DNA of 64,000 nt, taken from NCBI RefSeq assembly GCF_000503895.1, contig NC_022997.1, positions 62,001 to 126,000 of the forward strand, read 5' to 3'. This stretch comes from Hyphomicrobium nitrativorans NL23. Its GTDB lineage: Bacteria; Pseudomonadota; Alphaproteobacteria; Rhizobiales; Hyphomicrobiaceae. Positions 20,788-53,217 of this stretch are shown in pieces. The position numbers and the translations under genes were made by a program. Each line of letters begins with the position of its first letter. Position 1 is the first letter of the stretch. A model generated the notes under the pieces. That model was not told the origin of the DNA. It did not search any database and saw nothing but the letters and a program-made list of their open reading frames with translations.

Positions 20788-20910
20788 CGCGCTGTTCGTG
20801 GCCCTCTGTCCGGCGCACGCGCTGCGCGGGGCCGGGTCTTCGTTGACTTATCCACGGCTTTCGTCGCCCCTTCATACTCGCGCCAGGCATCCCTCACCCA
20901 GGCGCAGCTC

Positions 20911-28898: not shown

Positions 28899-30794
28899 AT
28901 GTGCGGGCTCTTTTCCTCGATCGGATTTTCTCCTGATCGCGCGCGGATCGACATCGTCGCCCACCGAGGCCCCGACGGAAGCGGCTGGGAGGTTCACGAC
29001 AGTCCCTCGGGGCCTGTCGCGCTTGGTCATCGACGCCTGGCAATTATCGATCTGTCGGAGGGCGGGCACCAGCCGACGTCGGATCCGACGGGCCGATACC
29101 ACATCGTGTTTAACGGCGAGATCTATAATTACATCGAGCTGCGCGAAACCCTGCGGCAGCAGGGCGAGATCTTCACCTCCGATTCGGATACCGAAGTGCT
29201 CTTGCGCGCCTTCGCGGTGTGGGATGAGGCAGCGCTCGACAAGCTGCGCGGCATGTTCGCGTTCGTGGTGTGGGACAAGCGCGAGAAGCGTTTGTTCGCC
29301 GCGCGCGACAGGTTCGGAATTAAACCGCTTTACATGGCGCAGGGCCCGCACGGCATCGCGTTCGCCTCCGAAATCAAGCAGCTGCTCAGCCTGCCCGGCG
29401 TCAGCGGACGCATGAACGTCGCGCGTGTTCACGATTTTCTCAGCTCGGGCATTGCCGACCATACACCTGAGACGATGTTCGATGGCGTTATGCAGCTTAG
29501 AGCGGGAGAGTGCATCAGCGTCGAAACCGGCAAGGGGCTCATCGAGGCCACCATACGGCGCTGGTATTCGACAAGCGTGCCGGAGATCCACCTTTCGGAA
29601 GCGGAAGCGGCTGAACGTTTTCGCGCCGCGCTCTCTGAGTCTGTCGCGTTACACTTGCGCTCGGACGTTCCCGTGGGCTCATGCCTGTCGGGCGGGCTCG
29701 ATTCTTCGGCTATCGTCTGCCTGATGTCGGAGTTCATGGGATCGGGGACGGGCGGACCTAAAGTCAACACGGTTTCGGCTTGTTACCCGGAAAAAAGCGT
29801 CGACGAGAAGCCGTTCATGGACGAGATCGTCGCGCACGCCGAGACGGTCCCACACTTCATCTACCCTCGTGCCGAAGACGTTTTCGCGAAGGCGTCCGAC
29901 ATCACGTGGCACCAGGACGAGCCGTTCGGATCGACCTCGATTTTCGCGCAATGGCGCGTGTTCGAGGAAGCGAGACGGGCGGGCATCAAGGTGATGCTGG
30001 ACGGCCAAGGCGCCGACGAGCCACTCGCAGGATATCATAGCAGCTTTACCTACTACATGGCCGGGCTGACCCGGCAGCGCGACTATCGGATGCTGCTGCG
30101 AACCATGCTGGAGCGCAAAAAGTTCCACGGCCTGCCTGTCACGGATCAACTCAAAACTTATCTCCTGCCATTGCTGCCAGGAAAACTTGCATATGCGCTC
30201 AGAGGTACTCGCCAGGTGCTGGTTCAGCACAACTGGCTCGACGGGGACGCTCTGCGGGAGCACGGTAATCCCAAAGGTGCACTGGCACTTGCCTCCGAGC
30301 TACTTGATCTTCCGCCTGTCACCGACATTCGCACGCTGTGCATGACACTCACGTACGCCTCCAATCTGCAGATGTTGCTGCATTGGGAGGATCGCAACTC
30401 GATGGCTCACTCCATCGAAGCCCGCGTTCCTTTTCTCGATCACCCGTTGGTTGAATTCCTGCTCGGGCTCGGAAACGACCACAAGATTGTCGGTGGCGAT
30501 ACCAAACGCGTTTTGCGCGCCGGCATGGCCGGCGTTCTCCCCGAAACGGTGCGGCAACGGCGCGACAAGCTCGGCTTCTCCACGCCGGAGCAAGTCTGGT
30601 TTCGCGGCCCGTTGCGCGGCCTCATCGAGGATGGGATCGAGAGCACGCTCAAGCGCTATCCCGAGCTGATGAACGCAGTCGGCGTGCGCGCATTGGCAGC
30701 TGACATGCTCGAAGGGCGGCGGCCCGTCGATTTCACGCTGTGGCGGATCGTCAATCTTGGGATCTGGGGCGAGCGGTTCGGGGTGAGCCTGTGA
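28899..30794 (+). CDS. AsnB-type glutamine-dependent amidotransferase, copy 1
   Basis: The 631-residue protein begins MCGLFSSIGFSPD, so the glutaminase nucleophile Cys2 is present, followed by HRGPDGSG, VFNGEIYNYIELRE and SDSDTEVLLRAF. The C-terminal synthetase domain has the ATP PP-loop SGGLDSS (about residue 266), LDGQGADEPLAGY and EDRNSMAHSIEARVPFLDHPLVEF. In polysaccharide loci such enzymes often amidate sugar carboxylates rather than aspartate. It is followed by a glycosyltransferase with overlapping codons (GTGA at 30791), so they work together. Two further paralogues are at 43426 and 47740. Confidence 0.9.
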   Translation: MCGLFSSIGFSPDRARIDIVAHRGPDGSGWEVHDSPSGPVALGHRRLAIIDLSEGGHQPTSDPTGRYHIVFNGEIYNYIELRETLRQQGEIFTSDSDTEVLLRAFAVWDEAALDKLRGMFAFVVWDKREKRLFAARDRFGIKPLYMAQGPHGIAFASEIKQLLSLPGVSGRMNVARVHDFLSSGIADHTPETMFDGVMQLRAGECISVETGKGLIEATIRRWYSTSVPEIHLSEAEAAERFRAALSESVALHLRSDVPVGSCLSGGLDSSAIVCLMSEFMGSGTGGPKVNTVSACYPEKSVDEKPFMDEIVAHAETVPHFIYPRAEDVFAKASDITWHQDEPFGSTSIFAQWRVFEEARRAGIKVMLDGQGADEPLAGYHSSFTYYMAGLTRQRDYRMLLRTMLERKKFHGLPVTDQLKTYLLPLLPGKLAYALRGTRQVLVQHNWLDGDALREHGNPKGALALASELLDLPPVTDIRTLCMTLTYASNLQMLLHWEDRNSMAHSIEARVPFLDHPLVEFLLGLGNDHKIVGGDTKRVLRAGMAGVLPETVRQRRDKLGFSTPEQVWFRGPLRGLIEDGIESTLKRYPELMNAVGVRALAADMLEGRRPVDFTLWRIVNLGIWGERFGVSL

Positions 30795-32315: not shown

Positions 32316-34892
32316 TCACGAACTGCCTTTTTTCTTGCAATAGGCGATCAAGAGTTGGCGGCCATCTCGTTCGGCGAAATAATCGTTCGAATCCTTCTCA
32401 GCTTGGCTCAATGCATTGATCGCATTGCTTTCCTCAGTGCTATAGGAACGCACAGCAATGGATCTCGGTTGCGGATCCTCCTCCGTCGGAACGGTGATAT
32501 CGTAGTAATCGCCGTAATCCACTAGGTGAACCGGGATAAAGGCGGAAGGCCCCGCTTGATCGATGGCGACAATCTCAAGCCCCTCGACACGTCCCAACAG
32601 GCGCCGAAGTCCGCGCTCATTGAACAGCGAGACGTGATAAGGCGGCACGACATTCGCGGAAGAGGCGCGGGACACTTTGGCATTGAGCTCTGAGAAGTGC
32701 GGCACGACCGTCACCAACATGCCGTCGGGCTTCAACACCGATGCATAGCCTTGAAGGAATTCTTTCGGTTTCGGAATATGCTCCAGAACGGCGACCGAGG
32801 AGATGACATCGAACAATTCACCGGACGCGCGAAGATTGGCGAGATCTGCCGTCGAAATGGTGAACCTGTCGTTGAACGCATTGCGCGCGATGTCCACGGA
32901 CTTTTTGTTGAACTCGTTGAGCTTTACAGTCCAGGATGGACGCGCTTCCGCAATCAGATTGGCAAAAGCGCCAAGGCCACCGCCGACGTCGAGCCATGTG
33001 CCGCTCGCACGGCCTCTTGTCGCACGATCGATGACCGCCATGAGCGTTTCTTTGGGCGCCGAGAAGGGCGTTGCGTCGCCACACCCGAGAAGCAGCGGCG
33101 CCTCAAAGAGATTTCTTACCTGGGTATAATAGGCGCCATCGTAAAGCTTCGCGATGATGTCGTCGGGGGGATAGGGATCGACGGTCACGAAACCGCAGGC
33201 CGAGCATTGCGCGTGAGTAAAACTATACTTGGAAAACGCAGGCGCTAGCGCAACCTGATCACAGGCCGGACACGCCTCATGTCGCGGCCATGTCTTCGGA
33301 TATCCCCCTTCCCTGAAACAGATCGCCTCTATCTCGGATCTCAATGTCGCAAGGCGATATTCTGGCGCGGCTGCTTCTGGCGCTGAACGATCCGTAACGC
33401 CCCCATCGAGTGATGGCATAGTCGCCGATGGCGACCCGGAAACACCCTCGTTCGCTTCAGGCGTCTCGTTTTCCATAGGCCTGTGGACGAGCGACAGATC
33501 GAGAAAGACGGGGGCGCCAAGATCCATTCCCGCATCTTCGACGAAGAACGGATAGTAGAAATGGCGGTACTCATAGAATTCCCACGTGGCGGGCTCGTTG
33601 GGCAACAGACCAATCGAGAGCAGGTACTCGCCCTTGCGGAACGGAACGTAATCGAAATGCAAGTCGATCGTGCCCCGACGGGCAGGCTTCCGGCGATCAG
33701 GCGCGCTGTCATAGCTCTCGCGGGTTTCGAAGGGCCGGATGTTCTGAGTGTAAAATTGGGCGACCGACGAGAGGTCGAGACGATTATTGATCGAGATCGC
33801 CACGCCAAGGCTTGACTCGGGTAACGGGCCGTCGACCCTATATTTAATCCTAAGAAGCGCGTGCTCATAGAACTTCAAGCGCGTCGTCCGCTCTCCAGCC
33901 GAATTGATCAATTCGACGCTGTCGATAAACACCGGACCGCGCCGAAAAATCTGCTGTCCGACAGAACGATCCTCGCCGCTCTGATTGCTCTCGAAAAGTT
34001 TGCGCGGTTCGAGGGCTTTCTGGCGCGGCGCGGCGGCGACTTTTTCTACTATGCTGCCGTCGACGCCGGAGGAGGAACTCTCAGCGGTAGCCAGATGCGG
34101 CTGATTACTCTTTTCCTTATCGAGCGCATCGTCGACAGTCTCAATCCAGCTTTCTTCATCCGAACTCTGGTGCGCAGCGAGATCATAAGCCTGAACGACC
34201 TGCATCGAAGGTCCAACCATGCGCACACGACCCTGATCGAGCCAAACGACCCGATTGCAAAGCTGGGCGAGCAGCGCTGTGCCGTGCGATACGAGCAATA
34301 CCGTGCGGCCGCCTGAACACAACTGACGAATCCGACGCAGTGACTTCTGTACGAAACCAGCATCACCCGTGGCGAGCGCTTCGTCGATGATCAAGATTTC
34401 GGGATCGACGGCCGTAGCGATGGAGAATGCCAAGCGCGCGTGCATACCGCTGGAATACGTCTTCACCGGCCGATTGATGAAGTCACCGAGACCGCTGAAC
34501 GCAATAATGCCGTCGATCTTTCTATCGATCTCCCCCTTGTTCATTCCGTAAAGGAGACCGCTCAGATAGATGTTTTCGCGACCGGAATATTCAGGATGGA
34601 AACCGAGGCCGAGTTCAAGGATCGCGCTTACGCGACCGCTGACTTCAACCGATCCGGATGTCGCTTCCAGTACGCCAGTGATGATCTTGAGAAGCGTGGA
34701 CTTGCCCGCTCCATTCGGCCCGATGATCCCCAGCACTTCTCCGCGCTGAACTTCGAAGCTGACGCCATCGAGCGCGCGAAACGTCGTGTGACGCGCTCGG
34801 CGTGTCAGGACCTCGATTGCGAGATCCAGTGGGCGGGTGAAGACTTGATACTCTTTAGCGACGGAATTGATCCGTATGGCCACATTGCTCAC
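32316..34892 (-). CDS. Fused Wzt ABC ATPase - glycan-binding domain - methyltransferase
   Basis: An 858-residue protein of three parts. Residues 1-240 are an ABC ATPase of the polysaccharide-export type: Walker A GPNGAGKST (58-66), YSSGMHARLAFS signature (146-157), Walker B LIIDEALATGD (167-177) and H203. Residues about 320-470 (FIDSVELINSAGERTTRLKFYEHALLRIKYRV ... FRKGEYLLSIGLL) match the beta-sandwich of Wzt C-terminal domains that recognise the finished non-reducing end. Residues about 541-566 form a zinc ribbon (CPAC, CSAC), and about 585-858 a class I methyltransferase (WLDVGGGLGAF at 633; FDVISSVAVLEHIPKP at 694). In E. coli O8/O9a the chain-capping methyltransferase WbdD and Wzt are separate proteins; here they are fused. 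The permease gene lies 24 bp upstream. Confidence 0.9.
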   Translation of the reverse strand: MSNVAIRINSVAKEYQVFTRPLDLAIEVLTRRARHTTFRALDGVSFEVQRGEVLGIIGPNGAGKSTLLKIITGVLEATSGSVEVSGRVSAILELGLGFHPEYSGRENIYLSGLLYGMNKGEIDRKIDGIIAFSGLGDFINRPVKTYSSGMHARLAFSIATAVDPEILIIDEALATGDAGFVQKSLRRIRQLCSGGRTVLLVSHGTALLAQLCNRVVWLDQGRVRMVGPSMQVVQAYDLAAHQSSDEESWIETVDDALDKEKSNQPHLATAESSSSGVDGSIVEKVAAAPRQKALEPRKLFESNQSGEDRSVGQQIFRRGPVFIDSVELINSAGERTTRLKFYEHALLRIKYRVDGPLPESSLGVAISINNRLDLSSVAQFYTQNIRPFETRESYDSAPDRRKPARRGTIDLHFDYVPFRKGEYLLSIGLLPNEPATWEFYEYRHFYYPFFVEDAGMDLGAPVFLDLSLVHRPMENETPEANEGVSGSPSATMPSLDGGVTDRSAPEAAAPEYRLATLRSEIEAICFREGGYPKTWPRHEACPACDQVALAPAFSKYSFTHAQCSACGFVTVDPYPPDDIIAKLYDGAYYTQVRNLFEAPLLLGCGDATPFSAPKETLMAVIDRATRGRASGTWLDVGGGLGAFANLIAEARPSWTVKLNEFNKKSVDIARNAFNDRFTISTADLANLRASGELFDVISSVAVLEHIPKPKEFLQGYASVLKPDGMLVTVVPHFSELNAKVSRASSANVVPPYHVSLFNERGLRRLLGRVEGLEIVAIDQAGPSAFIPVHLVDYGDYYDITVPTEEDPQPRSIAVRSYSTEESNAINALSQAEKDSNDYFAERDGRQLLIAYCKKKGSS

Positions 34893-34916: not shown

Positions 34917-35777
34917 TCAGAGGACGTTCGCGAAGTGGTGGCGCAATCTTGTGAAGACGTAGGAACCGCTCGCAAGAACGACAGAGGCCATGATCAAAAG
35001 AACAACCCATGCATATGGATGCTCGAACCGACCGAAGTACAAGACGTCCTGGTAGCACCATATGAGGTGGCTGAATGGGTTGAGCATCAAGGCATACTGC
35101 ATCTTCCCTGGAAGCATGCTTGGCAGATACATGACCGGCATGAGGTACACGTTTATCGTGACGAAAACACGAACGAACTCAGACACATCTCGGAAGTAAG
35201 GCGTTAAGCTCGACAAAAGTAACGCCAGCCCCCATAGCAATAGCACGTGCATCGCGAACAGGATTGGCAGCATCAGAAACATTGGATTGTAAATGCCGCG
35301 AACGATGATGATGTACCCGATCACCGTGAGAAACAGAATGGCCTGGACGAACAATGCCGAGGCCACGGTCTTGGCAATGAGCACCTCTGTCGGAAAGAGA
35401 ACTTTTTTGACAATCGTCTGGTTCGCGAAAAGAATGCTCGGGGAGCGAGCTATCACATCGGCAGTGAGCAACCAAGGCGCCAAGCCGGCAAACAAATATA
35501 TAAGGTAGTCGCTGGGACCACCGTCTCCGATACGCACACGGAACACCGCGGTGAAGAGGAACGCAAAGACAAAGAAGAGAGTAACGGGATGGAGGAACAA
35601 CCAGATGCCCCCGGCGACCTGCGCCGCATGCTGATCGGTTAGTTCGCGTCGAGAAAGCTCTTTTACGAGAGACCAATTCTTGACCACGCTATGGATCAGA
35701 CGAAATACTCCGAGACCATGCTCGTTCGTCGCTCTCCCGCGTTTAATCAATGCGTCGTCTGTGCCCCGATCAGTCAT
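34917..35777 (-). CDS. Polysaccharide ABC exporter permease (Wzm-like)
   Basis: The 286-residue ABC-2 permease has about six membrane segments and family features: ELSRRELTDQHAAQVAGGIWLFLHPVTLFFVFAFLFTAVFRVRIG, and the C-terminal VYLMPVMYLPSMLPGKMQYALMLNPFSHLIWCYQDVLYFG. Wzm proteins form the channel by which lipid-linked glycan crosses the inner membrane. It is paired with the fused Wzt-like ATPase just downstream, in the usual wzm-wzt order. Confidence 0.92.
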   Translation of the reverse strand: MTDRGTDDALIKRGRATNEHGLGVFRLIHSVVKNWSLVKELSRRELTDQHAAQVAGGIWLFLHPVTLFFVFAFLFTAVFRVRIGDGGPSDYLIYLFAGLAPWLLTADVIARSPSILFANQTIVKKVLFPTEVLIAKTVASALFVQAILFLTVIGYIIIVRGIYNPMFLMLPILFAMHVLLLWGLALLLSSLTPYFRDVSEFVRVFVTINVYLMPVMYLPSMLPGKMQYALMLNPFSHLIWCYQDVLYFGRFEHPYAWVVLLIMASVVLASGSYVFTRLRHHFANVL

Positions 35778-36233: not shown

Positions 36234-37658
36234 TTACGATCGGAATACAGCCTTGTGCAAAGCGCGGCGATAACGCAACGGAACCAATCTCCACACCCCG
36301 CGGACAGCTCGATATGCTAGCGTATGCTCATCGTCCTCAGGTGTCGTTTGCTCTCCTGCGATAGAGGACCCTTGCGCGTCCGCTGCTGCTGCGGCGGCAT
36401 CGGAGGCTTGCTTCGCGGCCTGGAGCAAACGGTCGTTTAGCACCGCCGCGTCCTGGGGATGAGCCGTCGGCTTCTCATTCAAGGCCCCAGGCGGAGGGGG
36501 GGCAAATTTCTGCGCCGTCGACGAGCGATACGCCACCCATCGCGGATCTATCCTTTCTGCATACTCCCGCTCGATCGTTTCGCGAAGCAGGTCCGCAAGA
36601 GCGCGATAGCCAAATTTCCCCGACTTCACCAAATGATCATACGCGCGATCAGCAAAACCTTGCAGGTAGTCGATATCCTCTATCTTGTCCAAGACATCGG
36701 CCGCATTAGAAAAATCCTTTTCCAACGGGATATAATGAACATCTGGCGTCAGAACATCCGAATAGTTTCCACGAAACAGAACCATCGGCGTCATCATCGC
36801 AGCACATTCAAAAACCCGAGGTGAAATCTGTCCCACATTGAACGGCGCCTCGAGTGGAGCGAGCACGTCCTTCATTTCATCATACGTTGGAGCGCGCCCC
36901 GTAGCGACCGTGAGGTCCTCGACCATTTTCTCAACAGCCGAATCAAAATCAAATACATTGGAGCCACTTTCCGACCCCAACACCGCCCGACACGATCCCA
37001 AAAAATTGTACCACGCATCGCCATAGATGCGGCTTTCATTGTCCATCGCGATATCAGTCGCCACGCCCCGCTTGAGAGCTACTTCTCGAAAGCGTCGCCC
37101 GATTTCGTATTTTTCGAATCCCAGGCGGCCGTATCTTGCGCCGATAGCGCGACCTCGGTAGCCGACTTTCACCTTCCGCTCCGCCAGCGGGATAATTGGG
37201 TAGCGCCCACGGTTCTCGATGACGCTTTCCGGCATGTATCCGGTGAGACCCTGAACAAGAGTCACGCCTGGAAGCTCCGACCTGGGATAAACGAGCGGCC
37301 AAAACTCCTTCTGCATACACGTCAACACAACGTGAAATCCAAGCCGGCGAATGGCACGATGCAGAGTTGCCGTGCGATCATAGTCATCTTGAATCGCTAT
37401 TATTTTAAGGCCGCGAAATTTCTGCAGCGCGTTTTGATAGTCGTCTCCAACATACCCCTCAAAGCAAAAACGGGTGCAATAATTGTTGAACACGACGTCG
37501 TAGTCATTGATATCAAAATCCATCACGGCGTTATGCGTTACATGCACATAGCTAACATCGTAATCTGTGAATTTCTTAAGAGCCGCCAGATACTCAAGGG
37601 TTGTCGGCGTAAAAGTCGACCACATCGAATAGGTAACGAGAATTTTCTTGCGCATCAA
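36234..37658 (-). CDS. Glycosyltransferase-like protein (group 1/CgeB-like C-terminal half)
   Basis: The 474-residue protein starts MMRKKILVTYSMWSTFTPTTLEYLAALKKFTDYDVSYVHV, a GT-B type opening, and has VGYRGRAIGARYGRLGFEKYEIGRRF and QISPRVFECAAMMTPMVLFRGNYSDVLTPDVHYIPLEKDFSN, the donor-site pattern of CgeB/glycosyltransferase-92-like proteins. The last 90 residues are Pro/Ala-rich and low-complexity, ending in a basic stretch. It stands alone between two gaps of about 450 bp and looks richer in A+T than the flanking genes, which hints at separate acquisition. Substrate unknown. Confidence 0.72.
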   Translation of the reverse strand: MMRKKILVTYSMWSTFTPTTLEYLAALKKFTDYDVSYVHVTHNAVMDFDINDYDVVFNNYCTRFCFEGYVGDDYQNALQKFRGLKIIAIQDDYDRTATLHRAIRRLGFHVVLTCMQKEFWPLVYPRSELPGVTLVQGLTGYMPESVIENRGRYPIIPLAERKVKVGYRGRAIGARYGRLGFEKYEIGRRFREVALKRGVATDIAMDNESRIYGDAWYNFLGSCRAVLGSESGSNVFDFDSAVEKMVEDLTVATGRAPTYDEMKDVLAPLEAPFNVGQISPRVFECAAMMTPMVLFRGNYSDVLTPDVHYIPLEKDFSNAADVLDKIEDIDYLQGFADRAYDHLVKSGKFGYRALADLLRETIEREYAERIDPRWVAYRSSTAQKFAPPPPGALNEKPTAHPQDAAVLNDRLLQAAKQASDAAAAAADAQGSSIAGEQTTPEDDEHTLAYRAVRGVWRLVPLRYRRALHKAVFRS

Positions 37659-38116: not shown

Positions 38117-39064
38117 TCACACCGGGCGAAACCGATAGCAGCCATCAATGCCGGCGTGAATGCGAGGCCGCGCGAGCGGCAGTTGCTGCCCATCAAAGGT
38201 CAAACCGGCGAGAAATCTGCGGCTTTCTGGGGGAAGGCGCTGGTCCATGATGGCCGCAAAACGCTTGTGCAGCAAGGACATCTCCCACGCCGATACCGCA
38301 ACGCCGAAGCTTTCCAAGGCGAAACCATGCCTAGCCGCGAGTTCCACAAACTGCGCGTGGGTATAGCATCGTGATATCGGGCAATCGGCGCCGTCGGTCG
38401 ACTTCCGAAAAGCCTCTGGCAAGCTAAGCGCTGCATCGATCCCCTGAACGATTTGTCTCTCGTAGGCAACATAGAGATGAACCCACAAACTGTCCGCGTG
38501 ATAGACCATGAACTGGGCTGCGCCGTCAGGTTTCAGAACGCGACGCAATTCCGCCAGCGTCCTGTCGATATCCGGCACGTGATGCAACACCCCCGAACTG
38601 TGAACCAGATCCATCGATGCATCGTCTAGCGGAAGATTGTCATCCGACACGTCATGGTGCAATAATTCCACGTCGCTGGAATGCAAAGCCAGCCGGTCGC
38701 ACGCTTCAGCCAGTGAAGATCTAGAGACATCGACGCCGACAAGGCGCGATGGCTTCGACTGAGTGGCAAAGCCAACTAGGTCGTATCCTGGACCACACCC
38801 GAAGTCGAGCACGGCCAAGCCATCCGCACCGGATACGGGCATCAGTTCGATGTAACCGAAGTACTGGTCGTTGCGCCAATGAAAGTCATCGAGCGACTCC
38901 TTGGCGGAGCTAAACTTCCGGTGAAGAGTCACGTTATGTCCGGTCCAGTACTCTTCAACTGCGCTTGTCTCGGCCTCCGGCTTCTTCCCCCTCGGTGCGG
39001 TCTTCAAAAGCCGCTGCGAGACAGACTTGAGACGAGCAATCAAACCGGGTTCGAAAATTCTCAT
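38117..39064 (-). CDS. SAM-dependent methyltransferase
   Basis: The 315-residue class I methyltransferase has motif I VLDFGCGPGYDLVGF (about 85), the acidic end of strand 2 GVDVSRSSLAEA, and DLVHSSGVLHHVPDIDRTLAELRRVLKPDG. It resembles methyltransferases that cap or decorate surface glycans, but no substrate motif can be named. Its ATG overlaps the stop of the upstream epimerase (ATGA at 39061-39064), so both act in one step sequence. Confidence 0.85.
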   Translation of the reverse strand: MRIFEPGLIARLKSVSQRLLKTAPRGKKPEAETSAVEEYWTGHNVTLHRKFSSAKESLDDFHWRNDQYFGYIELMPVSGADGLAVLDFGCGPGYDLVGFATQSKPSRLVGVDVSRSSLAEACDRLALHSSDVELLHHDVSDDNLPLDDASMDLVHSSGVLHHVPDIDRTLAELRRVLKPDGAAQFMVYHADSLWVHLYVAYERQIVQGIDAALSLPEAFRKSTDGADCPISRCYTHAQFVELAARHGFALESFGVAVSAWEMSLLHKRFAAIMDQRLPPESRRFLAGLTFDGQQLPLARPRIHAGIDGCYRFRPV

Positions 39065-40148
39065 GAAAGATCCATTTTAAAGTAAGCGCGCACCTCGGGC
39101 AGATGCTCGGCGTGCTGCATCACGCAGCGCAGAATCCTATCTTGGTTCCCCTTCGTCCACGCAACCGTACGCTTCAATCCTTCCTCATGACCAACGCTGG
39201 CGACGAAACCAAGCTGATCGCGCGCCTTGCTCGTATCGGCGAACCGCTGGCCCGAACGATCCCAGTCACGCGCCGGCTTCAGGCCGATCGGCGCTGCGTT
39301 GCCGGTCAGAGAATTGACGCGCTCGGCAAGCTGCAGGATAGTCGTCTCCTCACCGGAACCAAGATTGTATATCTCGCCCGGCGCCCCCCTCAGCGCGCAG
39401 GCTATCAGTCCCCGCGCCATATCCTCGACGAATATGAAGTCGCGCGTTGCGATGCCGCCGTTTTCGACAGGTAGGGCTTCGCCGTGCAGCGCCTTCCAAA
39501 TGAAGGTCGGCGTCACGTTGCGCCAGACGGTTTCCCGAGTCCCGCGCCAGCGGCCGGCCCCGAGGATCTCACCCGGACCATAGACGTTTTGAAAGCGGGC
39601 CTTAACGAAGGGCAGGCCATAGCGTGTGAAATAGTAGTTGCCGTACATCTCACCGATAAGCTTCGAAATCGAATACGGGCTGTCGTGAAAGAGCGAGACC
39701 GGCGCGTCTTCCATTGTTGCCGTGGCGCCATCGAAGGTCTTCGCCGCAACCGCGCACCCTGCCGCCGAGTACACGACCTTCTTGAGAGACTTGATATCCT
39801 TCAAACGCTCGAACAACTTCAGCGTCGTCAATGTATTGTTCTCATGATCAGCAAGCGGATCATGAATCGATGACTGGTTGCCATGGTAGCAGGCAAGGTG
39901 AAACGCATAGTCGATGTCGTCGTCGAGATCGCGCAAGATGCGATCATCGGTTATTGAACCAATCACAAGGCGCACGGCCGGATGCTCAGGTACGTTGGCC
40001 GGATCCGCGGAGAGGAAATTGTCGACGATTGTCACGCGCCGCGGCTGAGCGGCGAGGATTGCGCGCACCAGATTTGATCCGACGAAGCCGCCCCCCCCAC
40101 GACGAGCACGCTCCGGCCGGCGAAATCATCACCTTGCAAATCAGACAT
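39061..40148 (-). pseudogene. NAD-dependent sugar epimerase/dehydratase, frameshifted in a C8 tract
   Basis: The intact part (from about 40068) is an extended SDR: YAFHLACYHGNQSSIHDP, VYSAAGCAVAAK, YSISKLIGEMYGNYY with the catalytic Tyr-Lys, and ATRDFIFVEDMARGL. It lacks the NAD-binding glycine motif. This is found upstream in another frame starting MSDLQGDDFAGRSVLVVGG at 40148. One extra base in the run 40091-40098 (minus strand G8) would restore VLVVGGGGFVGSNLVRAILAA. With that base the protein has about 362 residues. The neighbouring genes suggest a role in nucleotide-sugar modification. It may be a base-calling error, a mutation or a switchable tract. Confidence 0.8.
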
Positions 40149-40253
40149 AATCGAGGATCTCCAGAAGTAGCGGCGCAAGGGACTGGCGACGCCAAGAAAC
40201 GCGAAGCGTGGCCAAAGAACAAGCGCTATTGGCAGGGCAGCCCCAAACCCGCT

Positions 40254-41477
40254 TCAGTGCAGCGCTTCATAGCGCGCTTGCGAGAACACGGCGTAGCATG
40301 TCGGCTGCGTTGTGCGCATCGACAACAGGGCTTCGCGATCGATATCAAAGGTTATGCTTGAAGCGTCTGACAGCGAGAGCTTGCGACCATCGACCTCAAG
40401 AGCATCTCCCTCTTCCGGTTTGCAACCCGCTACACCTGAAATCTCAAGCGACACCCGATACCTTCCCTCCGCAACGAAACGCAATGCCGTGGGGTTCCTT
40501 TTATGGCTTGTGGTGGTGTCGCCAACATAGTTAGGGACATTATCAAAATTTTCATGCGCTGGCGTATCTGCGGGAACGGCCAGAGTTACGATCCCTTTGC
40601 CATTGACGAGAACATCAACGTCTCGCCTATAGAGATACTCCATTGGATCGCCCCTCGCTGCGCGCACGAACATCGACCACACATCGAACGCGTTCTCCAT
40701 TCGAGTATGGGAAGGATTCCCCCTGATTTCAGAAATACTTTTGAGCATTATACTGCCGTCCTGGGAGACTGCGAACCCCCATGTCACATCGATGAAGCGC
40801 CACGCGTTCAGATAGTAGACTTCGGTGGCAATGTGGCTTTCACGCAGTCCGTCGGTGGTATAAAAAAAGCTCACCGGACGCGTTCGAATGCCCAAGGCAG
40901 CCATGATATCTCGAAATGCCTCGACGTGGTTTCCGCAAATTCCGGCTCCGACATCCAGACACATCTCAGAGCCAAGAGGAATTTGATCGCGAGCATAAGC
41001 CTTAAGATAGGAATATCTTCCTGTGCTCAATGACGAACGAACGACCGTGGCCGCCTCTATCGCGGCAAACGCCTTGAAAACCTCCCGCTTGTCAAAATCG
41101 CCGCTTGGATAGTTCTGAGCCACAGCGTGTGCTGCGCTTCCTACTCGGCAAGCGATCCGCATAACCTTCGTTGGCTGACTGGCACAGTCAACGAAGCGTT
41201 TGGGGTCGTCTCCCGCCAGATCCGCCATCTCATCGGCTGCGGAGCCCGCGCTTACGTTGCTCGCGTCCGGCTCATTCTCGGCCACACTATGGTTTTCTTC
41301 AGTAGGCACGAAGAAAAAGGCAAGCCCCGCACCCAATACTGCAAATGTGAGCACAAGACTCACCGCCGCGCGTTTGCGATTGGTCAACTCGACTCCCTGC
41401 TCAGCGAATGGCAGCTCTGGCAACAGAGGTCCGTCCGGAATAGACGTGATCGTCGCCCAAGACGAGGGGAGGGTCAA
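40254..41477 (-). CDS. Membrane-anchored transglutaminase-like protein
   Basis: The 407-residue protein has a short cytoplasmic start, one membrane segment (about 37-57, VSLVLTFAVLGAGLAFFFVP) and a long periplasmic part. A Cys-His-Asp triad in transglutaminase-like order is visible: GICGNHVEAFRDIMAALGI (C181), ESHIATEVYYL (H215) and WRFIDVTWG (D230). A C-terminal beta-rich domain follows (about 300-400). Bacterial members act as thiol hydrolases or amidases on peptide or amide bonds. The start overlaps the stop of the upstream epimerase (ATGA 41474-41477), so it belongs to the glycan operon. A role in modifying amidated or peptide-bearing glycan is a guess. Confidence 0.72.
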   Translation of the reverse strand: MTLPSSWATITSIPDGPLLPELPFAEQGVELTNRKRAAVSLVLTFAVLGAGLAFFFVPTEENHSVAENEPDASNVSAGSAADEMADLAGDDPKRFVDCASQPTKVMRIACRVGSAAHAVAQNYPSGDFDKREVFKAFAAIEAATVVRSSLSTGRYSYLKAYARDQIPLGSEMCLDVGAGICGNHVEAFRDIMAALGIRTRPVSFFYTTDGLRESHIATEVYYLNAWRFIDVTWGFAVSQDGSIMLKSISEIRGNPSHTRMENAFDVWSMFVRAARGDPMEYLYRRDVDVLVNGKGIVTLAVPADTPAHENFDNVPNYVGDTTTSHKRNPTALRFVAEGRYRVSLEISGVAGCKPEEGDALEVDGRKLSLSDASSITFDIDREALLSMRTTQPTCYAVFSQARYEALH

Positions 41478-42406
41478 GCGGGCGCCTTCAGGTGGCTGTA
41501 GATGGCGATGACTCCGTGCTCGTCATACCAAGCCAGCATCCGCTGGATAGTCTCCTCGAAAGAGTAGCGAGGTTGCCAGCCAAACGTCGCGATCGTGTGC
41601 GACGGGTCGAGAACCATCGACGCCACGTCGTCCGCGCCGGGCTCGACCTCGGGAACAGGTTCCGCAAGATCGACGCCAACGTGCGCTGCGACAAGATCGA
41701 AGATCTCCTTGATGGTATGCCCAGTGCCGGTCGAAACATTGTAGACCCCGGTCGGCGCGCCGTCTTCGAGGATCAGATCCATAACTGTAAAGAAGTCTTC
41801 GAGGTCGATGAAGTCCCGCACGGTCTTGGAGCAGAAACAGCTCTTGCCGGCCTTGAGACGCGTATAAAACGTCGGGATCGGACCGATGGCGAGGCGCGGC
41901 CCGGTCACATTGGCGAGCCGCAGCGACACGAACGGCAGGCCAGACATCGCGATGTAGCTCTCGCCGGCTTGCTTCGATATGCCGTAGCTCGTGAACGGCC
42001 GCGCAGGCGCATCGACAGGAACCGGCACCCGATCGGGCCGACCGTATCCGAGCGCGGTGTGGAAGTTGACAAACCGGCGGACGTTGGCGGATTGCGCGGC
42101 CTTGGCGACGTTGATGGTGCCCTCGACGTTGGTGCGCGTATCCTCCTGCCAGTCGTCAGGGTCCTTGTACGCGGCTGCCGAATGGATCACATGCGTCGGC
42201 GCGAACTCCGCAAATGCGCGATCGACAAGGTCCTTGTCGGCAACCGACCCGGTGACGACCTTCAGGCGCGGATGGCTATCGGGAAGCGAACCGCGATGTC
42301 CGGTTGCAAAGTTGTCGATGACCAACACATCATGATCCGCCACGAGATAGCGCTCGGTTAGGCCGGATCCGAGCGTTCCCGCTCCGCCTGTGATCAGTAT
42401 ACGCAT
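41474..42406 (-). CDS. NAD-dependent epimerase/dehydratase, tandem copy 2
   Basis: The 310-residue extended SDR has MRILITGGAGTLGSGLTERYL, VIHSAAAYKDPDDWQEDTRTNVEGT, the catalytic YGISKQAGESYI, and LRLANVTGPRLAIGPIPTFYTRLKAG. It shares YKDPDDW, GPxPxFYxRLxxGKxCF and a C-terminal EHGV...YxHLK with the gene just upstream (42419), showing duplication. GalE/RfbB-type enzymes epimerise or dehydrate nucleotide sugars; the missing TDP-type features prevent naming the substrate. It is followed directly by the transglutaminase-like gene. Confidence 0.87.
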   Translation of the reverse strand: MRILITGGAGTLGSGLTERYLVADHDVLVIDNFATGHRGSLPDSHPRLKVVTGSVADKDLVDRAFAEFAPTHVIHSAAAYKDPDDWQEDTRTNVEGTINVAKAAQSANVRRFVNFHTALGYGRPDRVPVPVDAPARPFTSYGISKQAGESYIAMSGLPFVSLRLANVTGPRLAIGPIPTFYTRLKAGKSCFCSKTVRDFIDLEDFFTVMDLILEDGAPTGVYNVSTGTGHTIKEIFDLVAAHVGVDLAEPVPEVEPGADDVASMVLDPSHTIATFGWQPRYSFEETIQRMLAWYDEHGVIAIYSHLKAPA

Positions 42407-42418
42407 GCCGTTTCTGCC

Positions 42419-43369
42419 TCAGCTTTTCTTGATTTCGCCGCGCGCTTCTTTGAGGTGCGTATAGCCGCCCTCGACGCCGTGCTCGGCCCAGCGGTCGACG
42501 GCTTTCCGAGCGATCTCCGAAAGCGGTGTAAAGCTGACATCGCCGAAATCGTCGAACGTGCGCGAGGGATCGAGCAGGATAGAGGCGGCGTCGTCCGGTC
42601 CGAGCGGACGCACTTCCGGCTCTGGGTAATCGTTGAACTTCATTGCGGAAACGACGGCGTCGTAAAGTTCGAGAATCGCGACGTCCTTGCCGGACGAGAA
42701 ATGGTAGGCGCCCTGCCCGGTGCCGTCGGCGGCACGCACGACAACTTTTGCAAGGTCTCCCGCGTAGCAGAAGTCGCGACGTGCAGGCGTCACAAAGCAC
42801 TTCTTCCCCTCAGAAAGACGAGAATAGAAGATGGGGAGAGGGCCCGACACATTGCGTTCGCCGATGACGTTCGCGAGGCGGAACGAAACCCATTCGACGC
42901 CTGAAAACTGCACGTAGTTTTCGCCGGCCGTCTTGGAAATGGCGTAGCTCGAATTGACGGGGCTGATCGGATGATCGAGCCGGATCGGCTGCTGGATCGG
43001 CTTCGTGCCGTAGCACAGCGCCGTCTGAAAATAGACGAGACGCTTGGCGCCGTGATCCTTGCACGCCTTGGCGATGTTGGCCGTGCCGCCCGCATTGACG
43101 AGTGCGTCCGTGCCCCAGTCATCGGGATCCTTGTAGGACGCCGCCGTGTGGATGACGACATCAGGCTTGAAGTCCGCGAAGAGTCGATCGACCAACGCAC
43201 CGTCGACAATCGTATCCTCAACCTGGGTCAGGTTGGACTGCGCAAGCAGGTTGTCGCGGCGGCCCGTCGAGAAATTGTCGATGGACAGGACCGTATCACC
43301 CCTCGCCAACAACATTTCCGCAACGGTGGAACCGACTTGACCGTTCCCGCCGGTGATGAAGACCTTCAT
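42419..43369 (-). CDS. NAD-dependent epimerase/dehydratase, tandem copy 1
   Basis: The 316-residue SDR starts MKVFITGGNGQVGSTVAEMLLARGDTVLSIDNFSTG (ATG 43369, GAGGA about 10 bases upstream; the frame opens at 43426). It has VIHTAASYKDPDDWGTDALVNAGGT, YAISKTAGENYVQ and FRLANVIGERNVSGPLPIFYSRLSEGK. It is a paralogue of the gene 12 bp downstream and follows an AsnB-type gene by 56 bp. The pair may make two epimers or act as a two-subunit enzyme, as seen for some UDP-sugar epimerases. Confidence 0.88.
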   Translation of the reverse strand: MKVFITGGNGQVGSTVAEMLLARGDTVLSIDNFSTGRRDNLLAQSNLTQVEDTIVDGALVDRLFADFKPDVVIHTAASYKDPDDWGTDALVNAGGTANIAKACKDHGAKRLVYFQTALCYGTKPIQQPIRLDHPISPVNSSYAISKTAGENYVQFSGVEWVSFRLANVIGERNVSGPLPIFYSRLSEGKKCFVTPARRDFCYAGDLAKVVVRAADGTGQGAYHFSSGKDVAILELYDAVVSAMKFNDYPEPEVRPLGPDDAASILLDPSRTFDDFGDVSFTPLSEIARKAVDRWAEHGVEGGYTHLKEARGEIKKS

Positions 43370-43425
43370 AGCTTGCTGTTCCTCTTCCCTGTAATCCTGT
43401 TCAGCGGCGTGGATGACGCTGCGCA

Positions 43426-45378
43426 CTATTGAGATGTCGTGTATACGACCGCTGGCTCTTCCGTGTGCTCATCGCACATCCGCTTGAACTCGTGCGCGCG
43501 GTCATGGAACCGCTGGTGCCAGAGTTCAAGACTTAACAACCCCCATACCTTGCGCGAGAACCGCTCCGTCTTCTCGAAGTTCGCGAGAATGGCGTCGGAG
43601 TTGAAGAAGTCGCGGTGGCGAGAGCGCTGCGTGTGGAAGATGTCGTGAACGAGATCCTTGAGCTCACCCGAGAACCACTCTTTGAGGGGCACCGGAAACC
43701 CCATCTTGTCGCGGCGCCCCGTGAGCTCGCCCGGCAAATCCGAAGCGAACGTCGTCTTGAGGAAGTGTTTCATCTGCCCGCCTGCGAACTTGACGTCCGC
43801 CGGGATCGAGGCCGCAAACTCGACGATGGCGTGATCGAGCAACGGGACGCGCGATTCAAGGCCGTGCGCCATGGACATGCGATCCTCAACATGAAGAAGG
43901 GCCGGCAGCAGGCACTTGAAATCGAAATGCGTCATGCTGTCGAGATAGGCTTCCTTGCGCACGTTGCGCTCGGAGTTGAAAATTCCTTGAAAGCGCTCGA
44001 ATACAGACTCGCGATCCAGGGCGCTCCAATCCACCTCGTCGGTCATGTCGGTCGAGCGGTCGATCAGACGGAAGTAACGCTCGTCCAGCGGACCGAACAG
44101 ACCTTTGGAGAAGAGCTGCTTGATGAGCGGCTTGTACTCCTGCAGCACGGTTAGGTGCGGAATGATCGATTCCGGCGTGACGACGAAATGCTTGCTGTTG
44201 GTGTACGTGCCGTCGATCGCAGCCTTCAGCGACTGCTCTAGATAGGCGATCAGATAGCGCGCATAGCCTCCGAAAATCTCGTCGCCGCCTTGACCGCCCA
44301 GAACCACCTTAACGTGCTCGGCAGCAAGCTTGGACACCATGTACTGCGGGAACGATCCGGGACCGGCGACGGGCTGATCGAGGTGGTAGATCACGTTCGC
44401 GATGTTGTCGCGGAAGTCCTCCGCCGTAATCTCGATCTCGTGCAGCGCGATGCCGCCCATATCGCAAGCCGCATGTGCAAAAGCGCTCTCGTCGTAGCCC
44501 GGAAAGCCGGTGAACTTGCCGTGAAAGCCGATGCACGCGGATGACGGCTCGCGCGCGGCGAGAATGCCGATAAGACTGGAATCGACGCCGCCCGAGACGT
44601 AAGCCCCGACTGGGACGTCTGAGCGCAGATGTGCGCGCACCGAGTCCTCAAGCAGGCCGTGCATCTGACCGCCGAACCATTCCGGGCGGTGGTCCCAGTC
44701 GATGTCGTAGTGCACATCCCAGTATCGGAACGTCCGCACATCGCCGTTCGAGACCGTGAGCGCATGGCCTGGGAGAAGCTGATGGACGTTCTTAAAGAGA
44801 CTGCGGTCGCCGATCGTATACTGGAAGGTGATATATTCGGCGAGCGCCTCGGGGTCGGTCGCAACCTCGGGCAGAACGGGCAGCAGTGCTTTAATCTCGG
44901 AGGCGAAGTAGAACACGCCGTCGACCACAGTGTAGTAGAACGGCTTGATCCCGAAGCGGTCGCGGGCCGCGAACAGCCGGTTTCCGTCCCACAGCGCGAA
45001 AGCAAACATCCCGCGCAAGTGCGTCAAGCAGTCGATGCCCCACTTTTCGTAAGCCGCGAGAATGGTTTCCGTGTCGGATGCGGACCGGAAGGTCCAGCCA
45101 TCCTGCAACTGATCCATCAACTCGACGTAATTATAGATTTCGCCATTGTAGGTGATGACGGAGCCGTTCGGGCCCGCCATGGGCTGGTGGCCGGTTGGCG
45201 ACAGATCGATGATGGCAAGACGGCGATGCGCAAGACCACAGGAGTCCGCTGCATTCAGCCACATGCCGTGCCCATCGGGTCCCCGATGCTCAATCAGGCG
45301 GCTCATCGCGCCCAGGCGACGACCGAGGTCACGTACTGGTTGGCCGTCGAGGGAAACGCAGCCGGCAATACCACACAT
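43426..45378 (-). CDS. AsnB-type glutamine-dependent amidotransferase, copy 2
   Basis: The 650-residue protein starts MCGIAGCVSLDGQPVRDLGRRLGAM with Cys2 intact, HRGPDGHG, TYNGEIYNYVEL, ARDRFGIKPFYY, then the PP-loop SGGVDSS (about 260), LGGQGGDEIFGGYARYLIAYLEQ and EDRMSMAHGLESRVPLLDHAIVEF. Length and order match AsnB-like amidotransferases of surface-polysaccharide loci. It heads the leftward operon with two epimerases, a transglutaminase-like protein, an epimerase and a methyltransferase. It may amidate a uronic acid. Confidence 0.9.
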   Translation of the reverse strand: MCGIAGCVSLDGQPVRDLGRRLGAMSRLIEHRGPDGHGMWLNAADSCGLAHRRLAIIDLSPTGHQPMAGPNGSVITYNGEIYNYVELMDQLQDGWTFRSASDTETILAAYEKWGIDCLTHLRGMFAFALWDGNRLFAARDRFGIKPFYYTVVDGVFYFASEIKALLPVLPEVATDPEALAEYITFQYTIGDRSLFKNVHQLLPGHALTVSNGDVRTFRYWDVHYDIDWDHRPEWFGGQMHGLLEDSVRAHLRSDVPVGAYVSGGVDSSLIGILAAREPSSACIGFHGKFTGFPGYDESAFAHAACDMGGIALHEIEITAEDFRDNIANVIYHLDQPVAGPGSFPQYMVSKLAAEHVKVVLGGQGGDEIFGGYARYLIAYLEQSLKAAIDGTYTNSKHFVVTPESIIPHLTVLQEYKPLIKQLFSKGLFGPLDERYFRLIDRSTDMTDEVDWSALDRESVFERFQGIFNSERNVRKEAYLDSMTHFDFKCLLPALLHVEDRMSMAHGLESRVPLLDHAIVEFAASIPADVKFAGGQMKHFLKTTFASDLPGELTGRRDKMGFPVPLKEWFSGELKDLVHDIFHTQRSRHRDFFNSDAILANFEKTERFSRKVWGLLSLELWHQRFHDRAHEFKRMCDEHTEEPAVVYTTSQ

Positions 45379-51928: not shown

Positions 51929-52762
51929 TCATTTTGTGAGGGTCGCGTAAATTTCCAAACCAACAATCCCAGGATACTTGGTCTTCAACAGTTCGCGGCG
52001 GCTCGACCACTTCTGGAATGGCGGCTCAGTATTGATATTTTCGCGCCGATACGAGAAAGAGGAGAACTTTGACGTCATCTTTCGGAGCGAACGGACCGAT
52101 ACGAAATCTGTATGGGGTGCAGCTTGTCCCTTTTCGTTGTGGTCGTAATCCCACTTTTCGGCGTCGCTCAAAGGCTTGACCGGCCCGACATATCCAAACC
52201 GCTCCCGGAACCAATAACGTAGCGTTTCGGACCTTGCTTGCTCCCAACGACGGTAAGAGTACGCATAATAGAGCATAACCATAAGCTTCCCGTCCGGACG
52301 AAGGAGTCGGTAGCACTCGTCGAGGGCGCGCTGGAGATTTCCAGTGTGATGGAGACATCCAATTGTCACGATCATGTCAAAGCTCTCGTCGGGGAACGGC
52401 GCCTTTAATACGCTACCTTGAACTGCTTGCCCCTCCAAACCGGCTTGGCGGATGCGGAAGTTGGCCATTTCAACCGGACCAGAGGCAATGTCTAGTCCGG
52501 TATAACGGGCACCGCTCTCCGCAAGTCGCTGGGCGATCGTCCCGTAGCCAAGCCCGACCTCAAGAACGTCTTTTCCCTTCAGCTCTTCGAACGGGATATG
52601 CAGGAAGAGGTAGGGATAAAAGGACAGGAACCAGTCATCGAACTTTTTCAGCGAAGCCGGCGAGGCATCTGCAATTCCGAGCACCCGCGCTTGGTTAGAC
52701 CCGCACAGCTCGTTCCAAAACGCAATATTCTGCTCGTCTAGGTTGGCTGTTTGGGCGGACAT
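51929..52762 (-). CDS. SAM-dependent methyltransferase
   Basis: The 277-residue class I methyltransferase from ATG 52762 (GAGGT 6 bases upstream) has KGKDVLEVGLGYGTIAQRLAESGARYTGLDIASGPVEMA (motif I at about residue 75), and FDMIVTIGCLHHTGNLQRALDECYRLLRPDGKLMVM. The C-terminal part (SYRRWEQARSETLRYWFRERFGY...) is not typical of small-molecule methyltransferases; some surface-glycan and lipid enzymes have such tails. It is convergent with the epimerase and stands alone. Confidence 0.82.
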   Translation of the reverse strand: MSAQTANLDEQNIAFWNELCGSNQARVLGIADASPASLKKFDDWFLSFYPYLFLHIPFEELKGKDVLEVGLGYGTIAQRLAESGARYTGLDIASGPVEMANFRIRQAGLEGQAVQGSVLKAPFPDESFDMIVTIGCLHHTGNLQRALDECYRLLRPDGKLMVMLYYAYSYRRWEQARSETLRYWFRERFGYVGPVKPLSDAEKWDYDHNEKGQAAPHTDFVSVRSLRKMTSKFSSFSYRRENINTEPPFQKWSSRRELLKTKYPGIVGLEIYATLTK

Positions 52763-53217
52763 CGGCAACCTCGTCTGATGAAGCAACATTCAAATTAGAA
52801 GGTGTGGGTCATCCGACCCTCGATCAGCGATATATACTATCCCTCCCTCACGTCGACCTTTTCAAGGGAACGCTCCGTCTGACCTATGGATTCCCTCGGT
52901 TGACGTCAGCGTCGATCCCGCTCTTATAGGTGGCAACGTTGACGAATTGAAGCCGGGAATGCAGCCAATTCTGCATGCATGGGCGAACCCTTGATGGAAA
53001 AAACTATCCCAGACAGCTATCGCTGCACTTTAATCAAGAAAGAGCCAGACCGAATTCGTTGAACCTCCGACGTGTCCCTGGTTTTCCCGATCAGGGAACG
53101 CGCCTTATTCCCTATCGAGCGTTGTAGGCGGGCATAGTCTGCGGCATTGACAGCGAGGAGCGACGGTGGACAGTAGCGCCTCCGCGACCCTTCCCGAACG
53201 CGACAAAGGCACTTCAG
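52763..53217. other. Non-coding gap upstream of the arabinose-5-phosphate isomerase gene
   Basis: Four hundred and fifty-five bases between divergent genes. One short minus-strand open frame (53017-53232) overlaps the isomerase start and has no ribosome site or known family, so it is not called. No repeat or hairpin is evident. Confidence 0.4.

What the first reader, a model, noticed from the sequence alone, without database searches (positions are those of the whole stretch)
32316..34892. Single protein joining export ATPase, glycan sensor and capping methyltransferase
In ABC-exported O-antigens the cap is added by one protein and read by the Wzt C-terminal domain of another. Here ATPase, Wzt-type domain, zinc ribbon and methyltransferase are one 858-residue chain. 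That would bring chain termination to the transporter itself and may fix chain length in a new way.
Basis: partly seen in the sequence, partly recalled or inferred. Interest (0 to 1): 0.72.

Follow-up and report, generated by a model that had tools for sequence, protein, structure and literature searches.

The report
Sugar exporter fused to methyl-capping enzyme
A bacterial sugar-chain exporter carries, in one protein, the motor, a sugar-end reading domain and a methyltransferase that in related bacteria is often a separate neighbouring gene; the fusion is real but rare, and it suggests, without proving, that the chain end is capped on the exporter itself.

Summary
Window 34892-32316 (-) is one open 858-residue gene in a single-contig genome: Wzt-type ATPase, weak Wzt_C domain, zinc-ribbon-like segment, class I methyltransferase (MT). 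Bosea sp. CS1GBMeth4 has the same protein over its whole length (60-62% identity), frame kept across the linker, so it is no split gene or assembly join. It is rare: apart from the window's genome, only that Bosea matched full length in the samples searched (397 order, 385 class, 60 relatives, 61 Bosea-genus genomes; overlapping).

Of 7 readable near relatives without the fusion, 6 have a separate MT directly after wzt or one gene away. Of 29 next genes after wzt across the phylum, 17 are MTs and 2 sulfotransferases. Published work (Vibrio anguillarum wbhA, E. coli WbdD) ties such MTs to O-antigen production or chain ending. Best reading: the fused domain is the chain-end enzyme tethered to the exporter. 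Against certainty: it is of another MT subfamily than those neighbours, the cluster holds two more MTs, and its closest folds are sugar C-methyltransferases. Nothing here tests chain length. Two other Wzt fusions turned up (sulfotransferase; radical SAM). New variant of a known kind.

The parts
34173..34892 (-). Wzt ATPase (nucleotide-binding) domain, residues 1-240
   Evidence: Pfam ABC_tran; closest solved chains 6amx, 8dku, 7k2t, E about 1e-65 (7K2T is Aquifex Wzm-Wzt by PMC9445017); motifs
33963..34172 (-). Variable linker 1, residues 241-310
   Evidence: 39% identity to Bosea, 11 gaps
33483..33962 (-). Wzt_C-type carbohydrate-binding domain, residues 311-470
   Evidence: Pfam Wzt_C 32.1 bits; CBD profile's two best PDB matches are Wzt CBD chains 8dky and 6o14, only E 0.06; AF2 beta-rich, pLDDT 58-95 by block of ten except one at 47
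33288..33482 (-). Linker 2, residues 471-535, largely disordered
   Evidence: AF2 pLDDT below 50 at protein residues 476-515; frame kept in Bosea
33153..33287 (-). Zinc-ribbon-like segment, residues 536-580, Cys 541, 544, 563, 566
   Evidence: Four Cys columns invariant in the 6 aligned sequences, window included; positions
32553..33152 (-). Class I SAM methyltransferase, residues 581-780
   Evidence: Pfam Methyltransf_23; AF2 pLDDT 85-97 in 14 of 20 blocks of ten; Foldseek sugar methyltransferases
32319..32552 (-). C-terminal extension of the MT, residues 781-858
   Evidence: 41% identity to Bosea; partly low pLDDT
34917..35777 (-). Wzm permease, partner of the fusion
   Evidence: Pfam ABC2_membrane; 53% identical, same place in Bosea
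38117..39064 (-). Separate methyltransferase in the cluster, possible alternative cap enzyme
   Evidence: Pfam Methyltransf_25; no relative seen in the Bosea stretches read
51929..52789 (-). Second separate methyltransferase near the cluster's far end
   Evidence: Pfam Methyltransf_11
39061..45378 (-). Block shared with Bosea: epimerase, transglutaminase-core protein, two epimerases, AsnB-type amidotransferase
   Evidence: 60-81% identity and same order in L074
28899..32233 (+). AsnB-type amidotransferase and GT4 glycosyltransferase next to the fusion
   Evidence: Pfam; relatives in L074/L121

Best explanation
The gene encodes the ATPase half of a Wzm-Wzt glycan exporter whose chain-end-modifying methyltransferase, often a separate gene just downstream of wzt, has been joined to the C-terminus of the Wzt carbohydrate-binding domain. 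Likely working: the glycan is built on its lipid carrier in the cytoplasm; the tethered MT methylates the non-reducing end at the exporter; the carbohydrate-binding domain, a flexible 40-65-residue linker away, reads the new end and licenses ATP-driven export through Wzm. Shown: the single open frame, its domains, its conservation in Bosea and the genomic linkage of MTs to wzt. Inferred: that this MT acts on the chain end, that the cap is O-methyl, and that modification and export are coupled in cis.
For: Full-length Bosea homologue in the same order and syntenic block; non-synonymous below synonymous difference in each of seven segments (weak for linker 1). Position: 8 unfused Wzts matched at E 1e-74 or better; one (G491) is unreadable, its contig ending about 260 bases after wzt; of the other 7, 6 have an MT directly after wzt (L076, L077, L078, L120) or one gene away (L075, L119). 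The 4 unfused ones whose CBD itself matches the window's (G702, G155, G192, G1130) are all among these 6. One of the MTs is TylF-type, a sugar O-methyltransferase family. Census: 17 of 29 next genes after wzt are MTs, 2 sulfotransferases, 10 other or unassigned. In 31 kb of the Bosea cluster (L074, L121; the contig ends 127 bases past the fusion) the fused MT was the only one found with 16 seed MTs. Papers (passages): V. anguillarum wzm-wzt-wbhA, MT called essential for O-antigen (PMC3360773); MT just downstream of wzt called 'very common' (PMC11380512); Aquifex Wzt CBD binds 3-O-methyl-mannose (PMC9445017).
Against: One of the 7 readable near relatives (G527, L079) showed no MT with 27 seeds, and neither did three of four slightly more distant ones (L081, L082, L084; L080 has one weak match before Wzm); L080, L081 and L082 hold a sulfotransferase relative instead. 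The fused zinc-ribbon MT is not in the subfamily of the MTs beside unfused wzt (L076 MT against it, E 0.075). Two further MTs lie in the window's cluster. Best Foldseek matches are sugar C-3 methyltransferases (MtmC, KijD1, TcaB9), although the profile's top PDB match is the ubiquinone O-methyltransferase. Of 11 genomes whose separate relatives of the fused MT I read in context, 8 showed no Wzt, in G219 and G310 it is 7-9 kb away, and only in G267 is the MT directly after wzt, there matching residues 617-732 alone, without the zinc part. The Wzt_C match is weak. The census took the best-scoring Wzt_C loci, which are not the window's CBD type, several from one genus, with no control at other gene positions.
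Confidence: 0.5

Rival explanations
1. The fused MT makes a methylated sugar (C- or O-methyl) on a nucleotide sugar or within the repeat unit; the fusion only keeps it near the assembly site. The cap, if any, is added by another enzyme, for instance the MT at 38117-39064.
For: Closest folds are sugar C-3 methyltransferases (that these bind zinc at the N-terminus is recalled); several nucleotide-sugar enzymes and two other MTs in the cluster.
Against: The Pfam families I recall for that group (Methyltransf_13/14) did not match at E 0.001; the tether is to the exporter, not to a sugar-nucleotide enzyme or glycosyltransferase; MT38117 was not found in the Bosea stretches read.
Confidence: 0.28
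2. A neutral gene fusion: stop loss between wzt and a downstream MT gene, with no consequence beyond having two enzymes on one chain; the MT acts as before, in trans.
For: MT genes lie directly after wzt in four relatives, so one stop loss would do; only two genomes are known to have it; a published CBD also works in trans (PMC9445017, passage).
Against: Kept between two lineages at 62% identity with a linker of conserved length; but that also fits an inherited neutral fusion.
Confidence: 0.17
3. Sequencing, assembly or annotation artefact joining two genes.
For: None found.
Against: Independent Bosea record with the same join; one-contig genome; codon-level conservation across the join.
Confidence: 0.02

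Closest known systems
E. coli O8/O9a WbdD with Wzm-Wzt
   Same: An MT ends the chain and the Wzt CBD reads the end before export (PMC3482155, PMC11231755; passages)
   Different: There the MT is a separate protein with a coiled-coil ruler that recruits the polymerase; here it is part of Wzt and no ruler was seen in the fusion
Vibrio anguillarum wzm-wzt-wbhA and Yersinia enterocolitica O:10 wzm-wzt-MT
   Same: MT gene directly after wzt; WbhA called essential for O-antigen (PMC3360773, PMC11380512; passages)
   Different: Separate genes
Aquifex aeolicus Wzm-Wzt
   Same: Among the closest solved ATPases and the only solved CBDs the CBD profile finds; CBD binds a 3-O-methyl cap (PMC9445017; passages)
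   Different: No MT domain; CBD similarity to the window very low (E 0.06)
K. pneumoniae O12 WbbB and O7 ORF6 multi-module enzymes
   Same: Terminator, or a predicted MT with a coiled coil, joined to another part of the machine in one chain (PMC11231755; passages)
   Different: Joined to polymerase modules, not to the exporter
Sugar C-3 methyltransferases TcaB9, KijD1, MtmC
   Same: Nearest folds of the MT part
   Different: Not joined to an ABC ATPase; PDB titles show TcaB9 and KijD1 with dTDP-sugars

Membership tests
Wzt (ATPase of the ABC O-antigen exporter, CBD class) | ABC ATPase with intact motifs, closest to Wzt/RfbE/TagH | tested here: met
   (NCBIfam models matched but below their own equivalog cut-offs)
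Wzt (ATPase of the ABC O-antigen exporter, CBD class) | Wzt_C carbohydrate-binding domain | tested here: met
   Weak but over cut-off, 32.1 against 30.4 bits; shared by unfused relatives
Wzt (ATPase of the ABC O-antigen exporter, CBD class) | Adjacent Wzm permease | tested here: met
   34917-35777
Wzt (ATPase of the ABC O-antigen exporter, CBD class) | CBD binds the capped chain end | not testable with these tools
   No binding data
WbdD-type chain terminator | SAM methyltransferase with intact SAM motif | tested here: met
WbdD-type chain terminator | Coiled-coil ruler separating terminator from polymerase site | tested here: not met
   Linker 2 largely disordered, 18% Pro+Gly, no heptad signal (p 0.90); linker 1 gave p 0.018 in the same crude test of nine stretches, not interpreted. 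Not filed as WbdD-type
WbdD-type chain terminator | Terminates the chain | not testable with these tools
   Needs glycan analysis
Sugar C-3 methyltransferase (TcaB9/TylC3 type) | Pfam Methyltransf_13 and Methyltransf_14 domains (names recalled) | tested here: not met
   Neither in the Pfam list at E 0.001

The most novel reading that the evidence does not exclude
End-modifying enzymes have repeatedly been built onto the exporter ATPase (MT here and in Bosea, sulfotransferase in G021, radical SAM in G858), giving a class of ABC glycan exporters that make the export signal themselves: modification, reading and export happen on one complex, so chain length is set by how fast a growing end reaches the exporter rather than by a coiled-coil ruler.
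Probability: 0.25. Interest if true: 0.72.

Novelty: new variant of a known kind. Interest (0 to 1): 0.5.

Why it matters
How chain ending and export are coupled in ABC-dependent glycan assembly is open; the terminators in the papers I saw are separate proteins or joined to the polymerase. A natural exporter-MT fusion would put both activities in one purifiable complex, so coupling could be tested directly. If the tether sets chain length, it is a second solution to the ruler problem.

Tried and rejected
Artefact: rejected. Long Wzt_C frames in the phylum scan as further MT fusions: ten frames of 675 aa or more, other than the window's and Bosea's, were read; 9 of 10 looked like out-of-frame upstream extensions (my reading of the translations, not a formal test), one was the radical SAM fusion. 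Shorter frames were not read for fusions. G050 and G491 were read by eye; no second enzyme seen. Plasmids: 0 of the 5000 best-scoring records cover 80% of the query (the record limit was reached). The genome searches score only a few candidates per genome (2), so a fusion could have been missed.

L096 at first looked like a Wzt followed by a close zinc-ribbon MT; its neighbour is an ABC exporter with its own membrane part, not Wzt (read by eye). Dropped.

Coiled-coil ruler in the standalone MTs of sister clusters: their N-terminal parts look helical, but a heptad-period test against 1000 shuffles gave nothing for L075, L076, L077 (p 0.17, 0.93, 0.19), while the fused protein's linker 1 gave p 0.018, which I do not interpret (nine stretches tested). 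The AF2 model of the L076 MT was unreliable (pLDDT 44). So the idea that a tether replaced a ruler is not supported here.

Reading the cap pocket from Aquifex residues: not attempted, the CBD match to Aquifex was too weak (E 0.06).

Census caveats: of 30 loci, L054 was dropped (contig end); the L055 frame was chosen by hand because the script picked an overlapping frame. 'Next gene' means the longest frame starting from 60 bases before to 450 after the end of wzt. At the laxer E 1e-4 a third sulfotransferase match appears.

My first count of relatives said 6 of 6; on checking I had left out G527 and G491, which match about as well, and it is 6 of 7 readable.

Literature: no Wzt-MT fusion seen in the listings, 100 of the held open-access library, nor in the passages of ten papers. 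The main review (PMC2937517) is not held, so absence from print is not shown.

Full report
What is there. The minus-strand frame 34892-32316 is a single open gene of 858 codons starting with GTG. The genome is one contig of 3.65 Mb. Pfam finds ABC_tran (41-173), Wzt_C (319-452, 32.1 bits against a cut-off of 30.4) and Methyltransf_23 (618-775). Between the last two lie a linker and two Cys pairs (541/544, 563/566). Wzm lies directly upstream (34917-35777). One Wzt_C match was found in the genome, this one.

Is the join real? Identity by part: ATPase 76%, linker 1 39%, CBD 65%, linker 2 41%, zinc part 62%, MT 64%, C-terminus 41%; in every part the non-synonymous difference (0.15-0.47) is below the synonymous one (0.63-0.89, near saturation), least clearly in linker 1. 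Bosea also shares the surrounding block: AsnB-type amidotransferase, two epimerases, transglutaminase-core protein, epimerase, Wzm, fusion, at 53-81% identity. The window's cluster has two extra genes in that block (36234, 38117).

How common? A full-length match was found, besides the window's own genome, in 1 of 397 genomes of the order (G330), in no other of 385 of the class, in no other of 60 relatives and in 1 of 61 genomes of the Bosea genus (again G330). The sets overlap, and only the top candidates of each genome were scored (2). In a Wzt_C scan of 398 phylum genomes, 85 had a match; of ten further frames of 675 aa or more that I read, one was a true C-terminal fusion, to SPASM/radical SAM (G858), and the relatives search gave another, to a sulfotransferase (G021, 716-aa frame).

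What stands in its place elsewhere? Eight unfused Wzts matched at E 1e-74 or better (G155, G192, G217; G702, G527, G491; G1130, G1135). In G491 the contig ends about 260 bases after wzt. Of the other seven, six have an MT on the 3' side of wzt: directly after it in L076 (G155), L077 (G192), L078 (G217) and L120 (G1135), one gene on in L075 (G702) and L119 (G1130). In G527 (L079) none was found with 27 seeds. The four unfused proteins whose CBD itself matches the window's (G702, G155, G192, G1130) all have the MT. The MTs are of several kinds: one shared by L075, L076 and L077, others in L119 and L120, and a TylF-type O-methyltransferase in L078; none matched the fused zinc-ribbon kind. Of four somewhat more distant relatives read (L080, L081, L082, L084), none showed an MT after wzt; three hold a sulfotransferase relative in the stretch. 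Five of the six MT-bearing clusters also have an AsnB-type gene directly before Wzm (L075, L076, L078, L119, L120).

Wider sample: of the 30 best Wzt_C loci, one dropped at a contig end, the next gene after wzt was an MT in 17 of 29, a sulfotransferase in 2, a glycosyltransferase in 3, one each of a dehydrogenase, a GDP-mannose dehydratase and Wzm, and unassigned in 4. The loci are not independent (four come from genus g504, three from g466), they are of the better-scoring Wzt_C type, and I ran no control at other gene positions. Even so this linkage is the main argument that the fused domain acts on the exported chain's end.

Relatives of the fused MT itself: separate zinc-ribbon MTs in the order are only about 20-31% identical. 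Of 11 genomes in which I read the surroundings of such a relative, 8 showed no Wzt, two had it 7-9 kb away (G219, G310), and in G267 an MT matching residues 617-732 only stands directly after wzt. So a split version of this very pair was not found.

Structure. An AF2 model of residues 296-858 (mean pLDDT 75) gives a beta-rich domain, a disordered stretch at 476-515 and a mostly confident MT. Foldseek's best PDB matches are MtmC, KijD1 and TcaB9, sugar C-3 methyltransferases, followed by general class I MTs. A profile of the MT and separate relatives finds the ubiquinone O-methyltransferase first. So the chemistry (O or C) is open. In Aquifex the CBDs form a dimer by exchanging C-terminal strands (PMC9445017, passages); if that holds here, each MT would hang beside the partner's CBD. 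That is inference.

Known biology, all seen as passages. In E. coli O9a WbdD ends the chain and the Wzt CBD reads the end (PMC3482155; PMC11231755). In V. anguillarum O-antigen transport needs the wzm-wzt-wbhA operon and the MT WbhA is called essential (PMC3360773). A paper on Yersinia calls an MT just downstream of wzt very common (PMC11380512). In Synechocystis a mutant of a nearby MT gene resembled the wzm and wzt mutants, but no difference in O-antigen was seen (PMC3769361). A. salmonicida has a sulfotransferase-domain gene after wzt, but no such residue in the known structure (PMC4483657). The last two warn against reading position as function. K. pneumoniae WbbB and O7 ORF6 join such modules to the polymerase (PMC11231755); I found no report of a terminator joined to the exporter in the searches named under Tried and rejected.

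Most likely working. The MT modifies the growing chain's end at the exporter and the CBD a short linker away reads it; export follows. What is shown is the gene, its conservation and the linkage; the rest is inference (0.5). The main rivals are an MT that acts on a nucleotide sugar or inside the repeat unit (0.28) and a fusion without consequence (0.17). Three AsnB-type amidotransferases in the window's cluster suggest amidated uronic acids (WbpS, such an enzyme, makes a uronamide: PMC7468200, passages), so the glycan is probably unlike the polymannose models.

Verdict. The cap idea is plausible and now has genomic support; the chain-length idea is untested. Known pathway, new arrangement: new variant of a known kind, interest 0.5.

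Noticed in passing
L012 1393-3540 (+), genome G021: Wzt with strong Wzt_C (2.4e-25) fused to a C-terminal Sulfotransfer_1 domain (4.2e-7): a second kind of exporter-modifier fusion.
   Followed up: partly
L065 3583-6150 (-), genome G858: Wzt with Wzt_C fused to SPASM and Radical_SAM domains, 856-aa frame.
   Followed up: partly
L080, L081, L082: Relatives of the window's Wzt whose stretches hold sulfotransferase relatives, in L080 and L081 in large frames (1381 and 1675 aa) before Wzm.
   Followed up: no
window 20323-22527 (+) and L078 6053-7195 (-): Proteins with DUF2793 inside glycan clusters in two genomes; in L078 it lies between the methyltransferase next to wzt and a glycosyltransferase-like gene. 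Role unknown.
   Followed up: no
window 28899-30794, 43426-45378, 47740-49569: Three AsnB-type amidotransferases in one glycan cluster; an AsnB gene also stands directly before Wzm in L075, L076, L078, L119 and L120.
   Followed up: partly
window 40254-41477 (-) and L074 4701-5936 (-): A transglutaminase-core protein conserved between nucleotide-sugar epimerase genes in the window and Bosea (60% identity).
   Followed up: no
L120 13395-14345 (+): PAPS-reductase-type gene in the glycan cluster of a Bosea-genus genome, possibly for sulfation.
   Followed up: no
window 36234-37658 (-): 474-aa protein without any Pfam match at E 0.001; a Bosea relative is part of an 895-aa frame with glycosyltransferase domains.
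   Followed up: partly
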